From IMG/VR virus record IMGVR_UViG_3300046616_000172, positions 1 through 28,382 of that record: a stretch of DNA of 28,382 bases. The stretch is one strand, 5' to 3'. The notes under the pieces were generated by a model that was not told the origin of the DNA, searched no databases, and worked only from the letters and a program-made list of their open reading frames with translations. This DNA comes from a virus. Position numbers and translations under genes: made by a program. Positions 6,336 to 12,151 of this stretch are shown piece by piece (the stretch's first letter is position 1; the number at the start of each line of letters is the position of its first letter).

Positions 6336-6680
6336 ATCGAAGGTGAAAATAATGCCGGGCTCACCTTTTCCGCCGTGACGATGATCGGGCCCGTGAACGT
6401 GCTTCCAGTCATCGTCAACGAGCAGCCCGGCGTCAACGAACCCGTCAATGCACGCTTTCGTGGTCGTGTTCAGGTTGTTCGGGTCGTACCTGCCGGCGCG
6501 ATCCTTCCAGATGTGCGCCACGATCCTGACGGGGTGATCAAAGGACCATCCTGGCGGCACTGCTTCGGCTGCTGCTTCCCGCCACGCCTTCACGCGATTG
6601 GCCTTGACCATGCGGTGCAGGCGCTGATTCGAGTTCAGCCAGTCGGTCGGCTTCGGGACGAAGATTTGCAGGCTGGTCAC
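6327..6680 (-). CDS. rusA: RusA-like Holliday junction resolvase
   Basis: A 117-residue protein, close to the E. coli RusA length. The core RYDPNNLNTTTKACIDGFVDAG (64-85) followed by LLVDDDWKHVHG (86-97) matches the RusA family: D66, K75, D79 and D89-D91 are the metal and catalytic candidates. RusA dimers cut four-way DNA junctions and resolve recombination or replication intermediates. The GTG at 6680 overlaps the previous stop as GTGA; a GTG at 6692 is an alternative. The gene ends inside CAGTGA site B. Confidence 0.88.
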   Translation of the reverse strand: MTSLQIFVPKPTDWLNSNQRLHRMVKANRVKAWREAAAEAVPPGWSFDHPVRIVAHIWKDRAGRYDPNNLNTTTKACIDGFVDAGLLVDDDWKHVHGPDHRHGGKGEPGIIFTFDSL

Positions 6681-7093
6681 GCCGCCATCCACCCGTCATG
6701 GTTGTCATCGGCGCCACCCTTGCGAGCCTCAGTAGCCAGGCGGCGCTCCTCGTTGCCCTCACGGCGCCCCTGCTCAAACAAGCGGTCCCATTCCTCCGGG
6801 TTGCGCTTACGCCAGCTCAGGGGGTGCTTCACGGGCTGCGCAGGACCCTCAATGGCCCGCTGCCCGGCCTCCCGTGACGCCCGGATCGCCAACGCACGCT
6901 TACGGATCGTCCCAGGATTCGGAAGATCCTGATCGTTCGCCCGGTAATGCTCAAGAACCGCCTGCTGCGCCTCGCTGTACGAAACCGGGGCCAGCGAGTG
7001 GGCCCAGATGTCGCGTGCGCCCTTCGTGACCTGCACCCGCGGGTCGTGCTGGTTGATCCAAGTGATCAGGGCTACCGTCTCGTCAAGCTGCAT
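6677..7093 (-). CDS. conserved phage protein, possible helicase-loader type
   Basis: A 138-residue protein. Residues 1-70 read as a small helical domain with LITWINQHDPRVQV, WAHSLAPVSYSEAQQAVLEHY and LPNPGTIRKRAL. This is the layout of phage helicase-loader or inhibitor proteins (G39P-like) that follow replication initiators, but the match is by general pattern only. The C-terminal 55 residues are charged and probably unstructured. The ATG at 7093 has GGAG six bases upstream and lies one base after the initiator stop, so both are probably co-translated. The role in replication is inferred. Confidence 0.6.
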   Translation of the reverse strand: MQLDETVALITWINQHDPRVQVTKGARDIWAHSLAPVSYSEAQQAVLEHYRANDQDLPNPGTIRKRALAIRASREAGQRAIEGPAQPVKHPLSWRKRNPEEWDRLFEQGRREGNEERRLATEARKGGADDNHDGWMAA

Positions 7094-7094
7094 C

Positions 7095-7961
7095 TCATGC
7101 TCCTAGTTCTAGTTGTCCAGCCATTTCGGCCCGTGTTTCCTGGAGGAGGTCAAAACCTGCCTGAAGCCTGACCTGCGAACCCGTCTTGGGTTTATTTCCC
7201 TGCGCTTTGATCTTTAGTGCCTCGAACTTCTCCCGCAGCTTCGGCAGGGACAGGATGTTTGACATCCAGAACTCGTCCGTTGTCGCGTACCTGGCGACGA
7301 ACAAAACCTGCTCCGGGGTGTACCCGTCCTTGTCGATCAGGAGCCTCGCCGCCCTGCGCCAGGAGTCGTTCGGCTTGTGCTTCACGTCGTTGGCCTTTAG
7401 TAGTTCAGAGAAGCCTTGAATGACCTGATCGACGTCGGGCCGATCAATCTTCGGGGAAGAAGCTTTAGCTTCTTCTTCTCTCTCTCTTTCTCTCTCTCTA
7501 GCCATTGCGATTTCGGAAGAATCGCATTGCGGATCGCTATGCGATTCGTATGCGGTTCGCATGCGAACCGCATTGGGTACCGCATTTTTGTTCCACCTGG
7601 CGGCGGCTCCCTTCTTGCCGGCCTCCACGCTGCGCTTCACGCCCTCGGATGTGCGGTTGTGTTCGGTGTAGTCGTGGACGTAGACCTTGCCATCTTCGAC
7701 CTCGGGGCAGAATTCGCATTCGTGGCCCGGGATGTGCCACAGCCCCTTGTCGATCAGAAGCCTCGTGTCAGCCCCTGAGCCGCCCACTTTGCGCTGCATG
7801 GGGCCTGATGCGATCACCCCGTCCGTGAGGTGCTGTGCGCAGTACAGGACGGACGCCGCGTGCATTAGGACCGCAGTTGGTGACTCATCAAGAACGTCCA
7901 TGATCTTCGGGTTGTCGAGGTAGCCGACATCAAATTGGGCAAACGCCCTCTTGTCAGCCAT
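7095..7961 (-). CDS. phage replication initiator / replisome organiser
   Basis: A 288-residue protein. The N-terminal part (about 1-120) resembles the winged-helix domain of phage replisome organisers (FAQFDVGYLDNPKIMDVL, HDYTEHNRT, AGKKGAAARWNK). A middle low-complexity Arg/Glu stretch (REREREREEEA, about 155-165) is encoded by a polypyrimidine/polypurine tract. A C-terminal DnaD-like domain (about 175-250) has DQVIQGFSELL, WRRAARLLIDKDGYTPEQV and WMSNILSLPKLREKFEAL. Such proteins bind an origin inside their own gene and recruit helicase. Strong palindromes at 7519-7573 fit that. CAGTGA site C sits just upstream of its start. Confidence 0.8.
   Translation of the reverse strand: MADKRAFAQFDVGYLDNPKIMDVLDESPTAVLMHAASVLYCAQHLTDGVIASGPMQRKVGGSGADTRLLIDKGLWHIPGHECEFCPEVEDGKVYVHDYTEHNRTSEGVKRSVEAGKKGAAARWNKNAVPNAVRMRTAYESHSDPQCDSSEIAMAREREREREEEAKASSPKIDRPDVDQVIQGFSELLKANDVKHKPNDSWRRAARLLIDKDGYTPEQVLFVARYATTDEFWMSNILSLPKLREKFEALKIKAQGNKPKTGSQVRLQAGFDLLQETRAEMAGQLELGA
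7469..7499 (+). repeat. 31-base polypyrimidine tract
   Basis: The plus strand has an uninterrupted run of C and T, mostly TC dinucleotides and TTC. It encodes the Arg/Glu low-complexity segment of the replication initiator on the other strand. Such a tract can melt or adopt triplex forms and lies about 20 bases from the palindromes of the probable origin. Confidence 0.8.
7519..7547. repeat. 9-bp inverted repeat in probable origin
   Basis: GAATCGCAT (7519-7527) and ATGCGATTC (7539-7547) are exact reverse complements around 11 bases. The units resemble the half-sites of the adjacent 24-bp palindrome (GCGAT/GCGGT variants), which suggests a set of initiator binding sites. Confidence 0.7.
7550..7573. 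repeat. 24-bp perfect palindrome, probable replication origin core
   Basis: The sequence from A7550 to T7573 is fully self-complementary (half-site ATGCGGTTCGCA). It lies inside the replication initiator gene, where many temperate phages of Gram-positive hosts keep their origin. Further related units (CGCAT, CGGAT, ACCGCAT) continue from about 7520 to 7585. The DNA structure is certain; the origin role is inferred. Confidence 0.72.
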
Positions 7962-8000: not shown

Positions 8001-8309
8001 TCACGCCGCGTCCTGGTAGTCGATGCCGAGCAGGCGATTGTAAAGGTCGAGCCGGCCAGTCCTCGAGAGCCTGTCGCGGAGGCGATTTTCGCGGCCCGTG
8101 TAGTCGATGGCTTTGAGGATGTAGCCGGATCCTTGGCCGATGCCGAGCATGTGCTCGATTTCGGCGATGATTTCGGGGGTTTTCAGACGGGTTGGTGCGG
8201 CGAAGTATGCTTCCCGACATGGGGGGCATTTGTGTTCGCGCATTTCTTTGTGCCTGACGAATCCTTGTTTGGTGCCGCAGATTTCGCGGTACACGGTGGG
8301 GTTGCTCAT
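8001..8309 (-). CDS. two-module protein: CGTK zinc motif plus helical module
   Basis: A 102-residue protein. The ATG at 8309 follows GGAGG by seven bases; the 61-residue longer reading is a shadow of the methyltransferase gene. Residues 9-35 carry EICGTKQGFVRH ... CPPCREAYF, a Cys-x(n)-CxxC knuckle. Residues 44-92 are helical (IIAEIEHMLGIGQ ... ILKAIDYTGRENRL ... LYNRLLGID). The same two modules occur as separate overlapping genes at 9499-9723 and 9248-9502, so this appears to be their fused relative. Function unknown; DNA binding is a reasonable guess. Confidence 0.75.
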   Translation of the reverse strand: MSNPTVYREICGTKQGFVRHKEMREHKCPPCREAYFAAPTRLKTPEIIAEIEHMLGIGQGSGYILKAIDYTGRENRLRDRLSRTGRLDLYNRLLGIDYQDAA

Positions 8310-8959
8310 GCTGCTACCTCCAGTGCGGGGCGGTGGTTGGCGGCGAAGACCGCGCGGGCGAATCCCATGGGTGTTGCGCTGCGGAAGTTGGCTCGCTCGG
8401 GCCCGGGTGATGCGAAGTGGATGCGGTTGTCTGGTGCGCCGAGGCTTTCGTCTTTGGCAGGCTCTGGCATGATGAAGCCGCCACCAGTCCACAGGCAGGT
8501 CTTTTTGGTGTAGTTGTCGCCGGGCTCAAAGGCGGTGAAGTCTGCGGGGTGGAACGTGTGCTGCGGCTTACCGAACGCGGAGGCAAGGACGCTGACGGGG
8601 TTCTCCACGAACCAGGGGGCACCGGACAGTCTGCCGATGGTGCGGCACTGCTCTGCCACCATCACGGCCTTAGCCTGGAACATCCTGTCTGCGGCCCGCT
8701 TCGTCTCGAACCAGCGCGCCCCACTCACGGCCATGTCAGTGCATGGGGGCCAGCCGAAGACCATGGCTATGTCGTGGGTGCGGATGACGTGGCCGAGATA
8801 GTCTGCGGCGTCTTCGATGGTGCCGGCGAAGCGCGTTACCTTGTCATCCATGGTGGTCACGCCGTGCTGCGGGTCAACGAGGATGGCGCGGTAGCCGGCC
8901 TCAACCCAGGGTGTTGTCATGTTGCCCGTGAGGTCACACAGGCTGATTACTGTTTTCAT
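8306..8959 (-). CDS. DNA cytosine methyltransferase-like protein
   Basis: A 217-residue protein, short for a full C5 methyltransferase. It has an SAM-pocket-like start (VISLCDLTGNMTTPWVEAGY, 4-23; VDPQ, 28-31), the catalytic-type FGWPPCTD (68-75, with C73) and WFVENPVS (116-123), equivalent to the PPC and ENV motifs of C5-cytosine enzymes. A large target-recognition domain is missing, as in several phage proteins annotated only as DNA methylase. It may protect phage DNA or modify a nucleotide. The ATG at 8959 overlaps the upstream stop. Activity on DNA is not proven by these motifs. Confidence 0.8.
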   Translation of the reverse strand: MKTVISLCDLTGNMTTPWVEAGYRAILVDPQHGVTTMDDKVTRFAGTIEDAADYLGHVIRTHDIAMVFGWPPCTDMAVSGARWFETKRAADRMFQAKAVMVAEQCRTIGRLSGAPWFVENPVSVLASAFGKPQHTFHPADFTAFEPGDNYTKKTCLWTGGGFIMPEPAKDESLGAPDNRIHFASPGPERANFRSATPMGFARAVFAANHRPALEVAA

Positions 8960-9913: not shown

Positions 9914-9925
9914 ACTGGGTTGATG

Positions 9926-9941
9926 CAGTGAATTGCAGTGA
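9926..9941 (+). promoter_or_regulatory. CAGTGA operator-like site D
   Basis: The plus strand reads CAGTGAATTGCAGTGA. On the minus strand TTCACTGCATCAACCCAGTAG follows, very close to TTCACTGCACCAATACGGTAG at site B, so a promoter related to that of site B may lie here although its -10 is poorer. It is in the gap after the SSB stop at 9953. Confidence 0.65.
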
Positions 9942-9952
9942 CTTGCTAGTGC

Positions 9953-10719: not shown

Positions 10720-11330
10720 GATGCCTGTTCGGTTGGTGTTGCTGGTTCGTGGTGGTCGTCTTCTCGTACTGCTGCGAGGATTTTCTGTGCATCCTCGGGG
10801 CTGATCTTGTTCGGGTGGTCCCATGTTGCGCCGATGACATGCCCTGCTGTGGCGAGCATCTGGGGTCCCTCGCCTTCGTATCCGGCATTGGTTAGCGCGT
10901 TTTTGATTGCCTGCCACTGAGCGATCCACGGCTCAGTCTGCGGTTCGGCCAGGACCGTGACCGCGTGCTGCTTGACCTTCTTCTGACTGATGCGGACAGG
11001 GATGGTGAACGCCGCGCTGATGTGCGACATTGCGACGACTTCGACGCCGCCGACCTTTTCGCCGGCATAGATAACCTCGGGGTTGTTGGCGAGTTTGACG
11101 AGTCGCCCGATCCACTTATCGGATTCGGTGCCCCACGCGTGGGCGATGACTCGGAGCATTCCCTTGGATGGTTTCCACGGTCGCCCGTCCATGCCTTCGA
11201 GGTCGATGATGACCGGCTTGGCTGCATCGCCCTTCCGAACGTCCTTGATCGTTGCAACGATGGGCGAGCCGGTGAGGTCCGATGCGTTGATCTGGTCAGA
11301 TTTGGCGACAAGCGCCTGTGATATGTCCAT
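10716..11330 (-). CDS. conserved phage protein next to RecE-like exonuclease
   Basis: A 204-residue protein starting MDISQALVAKSDQINASDL at the ATG at 11330, which shares one base with the exonuclease stop (TAATG). It has a beta-rich core (SPIVATIKDVRKGD, KPVIIDLEGMDGRPWKPSKGM, WIGRLVKLANNPEVIYAGEKVGG) and a helical C-terminus about 135-190. I know this as a recurring phage family beside PD-(D/E)XK exonucleases but not its activity. The position suggests a recombination partner such as an annealing or ssDNA-binding protein; that is inference. Confidence 0.72.
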   Translation of the reverse strand: MDISQALVAKSDQINASDLTGSPIVATIKDVRKGDAAKPVIIDLEGMDGRPWKPSKGMLRVIAHAWGTESDKWIGRLVKLANNPEVIYAGEKVGGVEVVAMSHISAAFTIPVRISQKKVKQHAVTVLAEPQTEPWIAQWQAIKNALTNAGYEGEGPQMLATAGHVIGATWDHPNKISPEDAQKILAAVREDDHHEPATPTEQAS

Positions 11331-12151
11331 TAGAAGGTGATCTCCACTTCTGTGTTGATGCCGAGTAGTTCCTCGGCTTGGTAGATGGCCCACATGGGCA
11401 GGCTGATGAGGTCGGCGTTGGGGTAGCCGGGCCAGGTGTTAGTTTCGACGCATTCGCGGTAGATCCGCTTTGCCCGGTCGTTGAGCTGCCTGCCGATATT
11501 GATGGCTTCGATGTCCAGTTCAACCACGGACACAAGGTAGGGTGCGGTCTTCTCGACGAGGACGAACTTGAACGGCAGTTCTTCGCCGGTCGCTGCTTTG
11601 ACGCCGTCAATGTAGTGCGCGGCGGACTGGTGATAGCCGAAGTTGTGGGCCGTCTTGCCGAACTCGTTAGGGTCGGCGTTGAGCGTCGTCTTCAGGTCCA
11701 CGAGCATGCCGGGCTTCCATGCGTCCGGGCGGCACTTCAAGGTGAGTCCATCCTCATCCCAGAAGACGGACTGTTCGGCCTTGTGGCCCCGGAATAGCTC
11801 CCGCGCCACAGGATGATCCATGGCAGCCTCGTACATGCTGGCGACTTGATCCATTTCCTTCTTGAGTAGCGGCTGCCTACCTTCAGCCAGCGCCTCCGCC
11901 TTGGCTTCCTTGGCTGCCTTGGTGAGCCAATTGTCGGCCTGAATAACGGCAATGCCGGAGATATCGTTTTCCAGGATCAGCGAGTGTGCCGCCGTCCCCA
12001 GCGTGAAGGCGTCGGAGAACTTCGGGTGCGTCTTGTCGTGCTGGTAGTGGGCCGGCGTGCGGGTGGCCAGCGTCTTCAACGACGTCGAGCCGATCGCCGG
12101 ATCCTTGTGATAATCGGTGTTGCTGATGCCGGGGTAGATGCCAGCCTTCAT
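11330..12151 (-). CDS. RecE-like PD-(D/E)XK exonuclease
   Basis: A 273-residue protein matching phage RecE/exodeoxyribonuclease VIII-type nucleases (DUF3799-like): LGTAAHSLILE (51-61), LKCRPDAW (138-145, D143), MLVDLKTT (149-156, D152 and K154 of the PD-(D/E)XK core) and the helix FGYHQSAAHYIDG (171-183). The enzyme would resect double-stranded DNA ends for recombination, with RusA later resolving junctions. The ATG at 12151 has AAGG four bases upstream. It is the first gene downstream of site E and its TAGAAT box, so it starts a sub-operon with the 10716, nrdH and ssb genes. Confidence 0.88.
   Translation of the reverse strand: MKAGIYPGISNTDYHKDPAIGSTSLKTLATRTPAHYQHDKTHPKFSDAFTLGTAAHSLILENDISGIAVIQADNWLTKAAKEAKAEALAEGRQPLLKKEMDQVASMYEAAMDHPVARELFRGHKAEQSVFWDEDGLTLKCRPDAWKPGMLVDLKTTLNADPNEFGKTAHNFGYHQSAAHYIDGVKAATGEELPFKFVLVEKTAPYLVSVVELDIEAINIGRQLNDRAKRIYRECVETNTWPGYPNADLISLPMWAIYQAEELLGINTEVEITF

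What the first reader, a model, noticed from the sequence alone, without database searches (positions are those of the whole stretch)
7469..7585. Probable replication origin inside the initiator gene: 24-bp palindrome, second inverted repeat and polypyrimidine tract
Within about 110 bases there are a 31-base pure pyrimidine run, a 9-bp inverted repeat and a perfect 24-bp palindrome built of related GCGRTTCG-type units. They sit in the low-complexity linker of the initiator, where coding constraint is weak. Temperate phages of Gram-positive bacteria often carry the origin within this gene.
Basis: partly seen in the sequence, partly recalled or inferred. Interest (0 to 1): 0.62.

Follow-up and report, generated by a model that had tools for sequence, protein, structure and literature searches.

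The report
Phage replication origin inside initiator gene
An Arthrobacter phage appears to carry its DNA-replication start site inside the gene for the protein that starts replication: a row of 11-base protein-binding repeats next to a one-sided purine tract, a layout also found with different repeats in dozens of related phages and resembling the classic origin of phage lambda.

Summary
In detail: pyrimidine run 7469-7499, perfect 24-bp palindrome 7550-7573 and 9-bp inverted repeat 7519-7527/7539-7547, all in the linker of a phage replication initiator (7095-7961, minus strand). The palindrome is not the conserved element. Relatives lose it but keep a row of 11-12-bp units, TGCG-N3-CGCA, followed directly by a purine tract on the coding strand. 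Synonymous codons in the linker are frozen (119/119 identical, 83% in flanks), so the DNA itself is under selection. A sister clade carries TGCA-N3-TGCA units in the same place, and two naturally swapped genes show that repeat type follows the N-terminal DNA-binding domain, not the C-terminal domain. Across 35 initiators the layout (repeats, then a short-period strand-asymmetric tract) exceeds control genes. In a hold-out set, 10/13 two-domain homologs have the tract and 0/12 short homologs do. Best reading: an intragenic, lambda-like origin that moves with its own DNA-binding domain, differing from lambda in that the tract is a short tandem repeat and not A+T-rich. Binding, unwinding and origin activity are inferred; GC skew is inconclusive. 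Confidence 0.8.

The parts
7095..7961 (-). Replication initiator gene, 288 aa
   Evidence: PHROG 4880 replisome organizer E=2e-16, 391 O-like E=5e-16, 2514 DnaD-like E=2e-14; no Pfam hit
7587..7961 (-). Part coding for the N-terminal domain (residues 1-125), inferred to bind the iterons
   Evidence: AlphaFold confident here only (pLDDT about 70-90 over residues 11-100); repeat type follows this domain in swapped genes
7503..7585 (-). Iteron array, about seven 11-12-bp units TGCG-N3-CGCA (some degenerate); contains the 24-bp palindrome 7550-7573 and the 9-bp inverted repeat 7519-7527/7539-7547
   Evidence: self-similarity 63 pairs against 4.8 in shuffles
7469..7499 (-).
   Evidence: present in all close relatives and in initiators generally
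7456..7475 (.). 9-bp perfect inverted repeat with 2-nt loop, overlapping the tract; present only in some relatives
7098..7457 (-). C-terminal domain of the initiator, exchangeable between phages; inferred to recruit the helicase loader
6677..7093 (-). Downstream gene, possible helicase loader (weak)
   Evidence: phrog_2289 helicase loader only E=0.07; follows the initiator also in L003, L004 and L033

Best explanation
The segment of about 7456-7585 is the phage's replication origin, embedded in the inter-domain linker of its initiator gene. Proposed mechanism: the N-terminal winged-helix-like domain binds the row of TGCG-N3-CGCA iterons, spaced about one helical turn apart; the nucleoprotein complex strains and opens the adjacent strand-asymmetric purine tract; the C-terminal domain delivers the helicase loader or DnaB-type helicase there for theta replication, with operon transcription running through the site. 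Shown here: anatomy, non-randomness, DNA-level selection, conserved layout, coupling of repeat type to the N-terminal domain. Inferred: binding, opening, helicase loading, origin activity.
For: Initiator homology. Features real and clustered. Synonymous codons in the linker 119/119 identical against 83% in flanks, 89% against 47-51%, 90% against 54-57%, in three groups of relatives, permutation p<=1e-4, not explained by amino-acid composition. Same layout with different repeats in relatives down to about 33% N-domain identity. Reciprocal domain swaps L034 and L022: repeats follow the N-domain, not the C-domain. Tract above control 95th percentile in 30/35 initiators, and 10/13 two-domain against 0/12 single-domain hold-out homologs. 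Repeats before the tract p<=0.01 in 14/32 against 1/150 control windows; lambda O passes as positive control. Lambda's A+T region likewise has almost all purines in one strand (PMC5043065).
Against: No functional data. GC skew: local minimum at 7824 in the window, weak in the prophage relative, absent in ArV2. The tract is about 45% G+C, not an A+T-rich unwinding element. Arrays of L034 and ArV2 taken alone are not significant. Tract polarity is not universal: C-rich on the coding strand in Footloose, Yvonnetastic and others. Some thresholds were chosen after looking, and the sequences are related.
Confidence: 0.8

Rival explanations
1. The array is an autoregulatory site: the initiator binds inside its own gene to limit its expression, and the origin lies elsewhere.
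For: Repeat type follows the DNA-binding domain, which any binding role would predict; the site lies in the transcribed operon.
Against: It is inside the coding sequence, not at a promoter; the adjacent strand-asymmetric tract, conserved across initiators, has no role in this model. It could be true in addition to origin function.
Confidence: 0.08
2. The array is a secondary initiator-binding site (replication-switch or fork-stalling site), with the main origin elsewhere in the genome, as SPP1 has two origins.
For: SPP1 gp38 binds both oriL (within gene 38) and oriR, about 13 kb apart; stalling at bound oriR is the proposed switch (PMC6316719). The window is a fragment, so a second site may be missing.
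Against: No other comparable array in the 28 kb held.
Confidence: 0.06
3. No DNA function: a low-complexity linker that grows by slippage, with repeats as a by-product.
For: Linker amino acids vary and look low-complexity; some tracts are simple microsatellites, and the DNA pattern also occurs in unrelated genes (5 of 12 hits).
Against: Synonymous sites are frozen; repeats track the N-domain in swapped genes; all four tract arginines use AGA, which the gene uses nowhere else.
Confidence: 0.02
4. A recombination hot spot that joins interchangeable N- and C-domain modules, with no direct role in replication.
For: Modules do swap at this point (L034, L022); L005 shares the tract and hairpin DNA with the window despite about 62% N-domain identity.
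Against: The repeats differ between clades, so they offer little shared homology; the repeat array is phased at about 11 bp. Exchange at a conserved functional element explains the swaps more simply.
Confidence: 0.04

Closest known systems
Phage lambda origin (ori-lambda within gene O)
   Same: Repeats in the middle of the initiator gene, followed directly by a tract with purines concentrated on one strand; lambda O scores like the present gene in both tests (PMC5043065)
   Different: Lambda has four 18-bp iterons and an A+T-rich tract; here about seven 11-12-bp quasi-palindromic units and a GA repeat of about 45% G+C
Bacillus phage SPP1 oriL within gene 38
   Same: Direct repeats within the initiator gene, bound by its product gp38 (PMC6316719)
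   Different: SPP1 oriL has an AT-rich unwinding region, and SPP1 has a second origin oriR outside the gene; sequence homology was not tested
Phage P1 oriL within repL
   Same: Origin inside a replication gene, shown by synonymous mutation (PMC9948254)
   Different: The essential element there is an A/T-rich region; homology not tested
RepA-like initiators of extrachromosomal mycobacteriophages
   Same: Actinophage initiators with an N-terminal helix-turn-helix domain; an origin upstream of or within repA was suspected by analogy with lambda (PMC7157519)
   Different: Those authors report no repeated motifs in the regions examined; here a defined array and tract are identified. Homology of those RepA proteins to this initiator was not tested

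Membership tests
Lambda-type intragenic iteron origin | Tandem repeats within the initiator gene, between the N- and C-terminal domains | tested here: met
Lambda-type intragenic iteron origin | Adjacent strand-asymmetric tract (purines on one strand) | tested here: met
   31 of 31 purines on the coding strand
Lambda-type intragenic iteron origin | The adjacent tract is A+T-rich | tested here: not met
   The tract 7469-7499 is a CT/GA repeat of about 45% G+C; therefore it is described as working like the lambda origin, not filed as a member
Lambda-type intragenic iteron origin | Initiator binds the iterons | not testable with these tools
   Indirect only: repeat type co-varies with the N-domain
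Lambda-type intragenic iteron origin | Supports autonomous replication and local unwinding | not testable with these tools
   Needs plasmid and unwinding assays
Phage replisome organizer / O-like initiator family | Profile match to PHROG replisome organizer and O-like initiator families | tested here: met
   phrog_4880 E=2e-16, phrog_391 E=5e-16
Phage replisome organizer / O-like initiator family | Winged-helix fold of the N-domain | tested here: inconclusive
   Model confident for about residues 11-100, but PDB matches not significant; best are MarR-type regulators at E>=0.15
DnaA-dependent oriC | Cluster of DnaA boxes at the site | tested here: not met
   5 TTGTCCACA-like sites in the window, chance expectation 5.3, none near 7.5 kb

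The most novel reading that the evidence does not exclude
In actinobacterial and some other phages the inter-domain linker of the initiator gene is a portable origin cassette in which the usual A+T-rich opening element is replaced by a short-period (2-, 5-, 6- or 7-8-nt) strand-asymmetric tandem repeat. It would be read as single strand by the initiator or helicase loader, somewhat as DnaA-trios are read in bacterial oriC. N-domain, iterons and tract would form a self-matching unit that recombines as a block with different helicase-recruiting C-domains.
Probability: 0.25. Interest if true: 0.7.

Novelty: new variant of a known kind. Interest (0 to 1): 0.48.

Why it matters
It gives exact, testable origin coordinates for an Arthrobacter phage and, by the same layout, candidate origins in about 30 actinophage initiator genes; in a study of mycobacteriophage RepA-like initiators the authors found no repeats and could only suspect an origin in or near repA. 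The reciprocal domain swaps are a natural experiment linking a DNA-binding domain to its repeat sequence, useful for decoding initiator specificity and for building Arthrobacter replicons. If the short-period tract is the opening element, origin opening in these G+C-rich phages does not require an A+T-rich stretch.

Tried and rejected
GC skew as an origin marker: local minimum at 7824 in the window, weak in the near-identical prophage, absent in ArV2, so not used. The first iteron score (counts of 7-mers with one mismatch) did not separate initiators from controls (2/35 above the 95th percentile) and was replaced by a pairwise self-similarity test with shuffles; the two should be read together. 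An exact scan of viral contigs for two perfect tandem units TGCGAWTCGCA found none, so the arrays are degenerate and phage-specific. A first combined pattern was mis-specified and found nothing. The pattern-first scan (GCAATG plus GA tract) gave 12 hits, 7 initiator homologs and 5 unrelated, so the DNA pattern alone is not diagnostic. A first hold-out script picked wrong reading frames and was redone with an HMM. PHROG 391 hits in prokaryote genomes are mostly weak and heterogeneous and were not counted as initiators unless the HMM confirmed them. PDB fold search: no significant match. DnaA boxes at chance. Polypurine triplex (H-DNA) considered, but (CCGAC)n and (CCCGT)n tracts are not homopurine, so it cannot be the general principle. 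Cruciform extrusion of the palindrome considered: the strand folds unusually well (z=-4.7), but the perfect palindrome is not conserved.

Full report
What is there. The window is a 28,382-base virus record. Its closest relatives are an Arthrobacter prophage (L004/L006, 96% protein identity) and a 42-kb IMG/VR contig (L003, 98%). The minus-strand gene 7095-7961 encodes a 288-residue protein with no Pfam hit but clear PHROG matches to phage replisome organizers and to O-like and DnaD-like initiators. Codons of about 126-168 form a linker. On the coding strand it reads as a row of 11-12-bp units of the form TGCG-N3-CGCA, followed within a few bases by 31 purines. The palindrome and inverted repeat arise because neighbouring units abut (CGCA next to TGCG). 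Purine or pyrimidine runs above 21 nt did not occur in 200 shuffles of the whole window; a 24-bp palindrome occurred once. The motif is at chance level over the window as a whole but strongly clustered at 7528-7584.

Is it selected as DNA? Counting only positions with identical amino acids, synonymous codons in the linker are identical in 119/119 comparisons among window, L003 and L004 (flanks 83%). For window, L033 and L034 the figure is 89% (flanks 51% and 47%), and for the ArV2 group 90% (flanks 57% and 54%); column permutation gives p<=1e-4 in each. Expectations matched by amino acid are 83%, 46% and 63%. All four arginines of the window tract use AGA, which occurs nowhere else in the gene.

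Does it travel with the initiator? The perfect palindrome does not: L003, L004, L033 and L034 carry altered versions. The array does. A sister clade (ArV2, L020, L021, L022, L005; 61-66% identical to the window clade in the N-domain) has TGCA-N3-TGCA units at the same place. In the 100 nt before the tract, the window clade has 5-9 TGCG/CGCA and no TGCA; the sister clade has 4-8 TGCA and 0-2 TGCG/CGCA. The C-terminal domains do not follow the clades. L034 couples the window-type N-domain and repeats to an ArV2-type C-domain; L022 couples the ArV2-type N-domain and repeats to a window-type C-domain. Repeat type therefore follows the N-terminal domain, as expected if that domain binds the repeats.

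How general is it? I collected 35 initiator genes (34 by protein similarity, without a DNA criterion, plus lambda O as a control). The best short-period tandem score exceeds the 95th percentile of 132 other ORFs from the same loci in 30 of 35, and purine/pyrimidine asymmetry does so in 25 of 35. The tract differs by lineage: AG, AGAGA or GGAGA repeats in the window's family; GAGACA in Rousseau, Catfish, Typha and ThulaThula; GGGAACA-type in Austintatious and Norvs; and (CCGAC)n or (CCCGT)n, C-rich on the coding strand, in Yvonnetastic, Footloose and Phonegingi. In a hold-out set of homologs from prophages found by HMM, 10 of 13 two-domain proteins pass the tandem threshold and 0 of 12 short single-domain homologs do (Fisher p=1e-4). 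The 100 nt before the tract is enriched in internal repeats: 14/32 at p<=0.01 against 1/150 random windows, with lambda among those that pass. Limits: thresholds were set after part of the data had been seen; the sequences are related and so not independent; short homologs lack a linker altogether; an earlier, cruder repeat score was not discriminating; and L034 and ArV2 taken alone are not significant.

How it probably works. Lambda's iterons are annotated inside O and its A+T region has nearly all purines in one strand (PMC5043065); SPP1 oriL lies inside gene 38, whose product binds its repeats (PMC6316719). By analogy, the N-domain binds the repeats, the complex opens the adjacent tract, and the C-domain brings in the helicase loader or DnaB-type helicase encoded nearby; operon transcription passes through the site. 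Binding, opening and loading are inferences. The tract is not A+T-rich, so this is not filed as a member of the lambda origin family; it works like one.

What does not help. GC skew changes sign near 7.5-7.8 kb in the window without a change in gene direction, but the near-identical prophage shows only a weak inflection and ArV2 none. The AlphaFold model is confident only for the N-domain, and PDB matches are not significant. DnaA boxes are at chance.

What is known. Origins inside replication genes are established or supported for lambda, SPP1 oriL and phage P1 oriL, the last by synonymous mutation (PMC9948254). For mycobacteriophage RepA-like initiators the authors saw no repeats and suggested an origin upstream of or within repA (PMC7157519). 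The ArV2 paper names ORF59 a replication protein; a text search of it found no mention of repeats or of a replication origin (PMC4205034). I found no paper describing this array, or the short-period tract, as a recurrent element, but the literature search covers open-access papers only; the 2006 review on bacteriophage replication modules (Weigel and Seitz) was seen only as a citation and could not be read here. Verdict: a well-supported, lambda-like intragenic origin with its own repeat and a different kind of tract; new variant of a known kind.

Noticed in passing
7456-7475: Perfect 9-bp hairpin GAAGAAGCT-AA-AGCTTCTTC at the end of the tract. Its DNA is shared by window, L003, L004, L033 and the otherwise different L005, and is absent in L034, ArV2 and L020-L022, so it may mark a recombination joint or belong to the C-domain module.
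   Followed up: partly
L034 and L022 (initiator genes): Reciprocal domain swaps: N-domain with matching repeats of one clade joined to the C-domain of the other, with the joint at or just after the tract.
   Followed up: yes
L005:4980-5040: A second cluster of TTTGCAT-like sites lies in the N-domain coding part of L005, upstream of the main array; it may be further initiator sites or a coding coincidence.
   Followed up: no
9924-9951: Small tandem array (unit TGCAGTGAAT, 2.7 copies) just downstream of the single-strand DNA-binding protein gene.
   Followed up: no
L045, L046, L047, L049: Homologs of the N-domain fused to an apparent HNH-nuclease-like region carry a (GGCAG)n tract much further along the gene.
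   Followed up: no
11330-12151 and 8306-8959: Neighbouring genes: exonuclease VIII-like (PHROG 412, Pfam DUF3799) and a DNA methyltransferase (PHROG 757).
   Followed up: no
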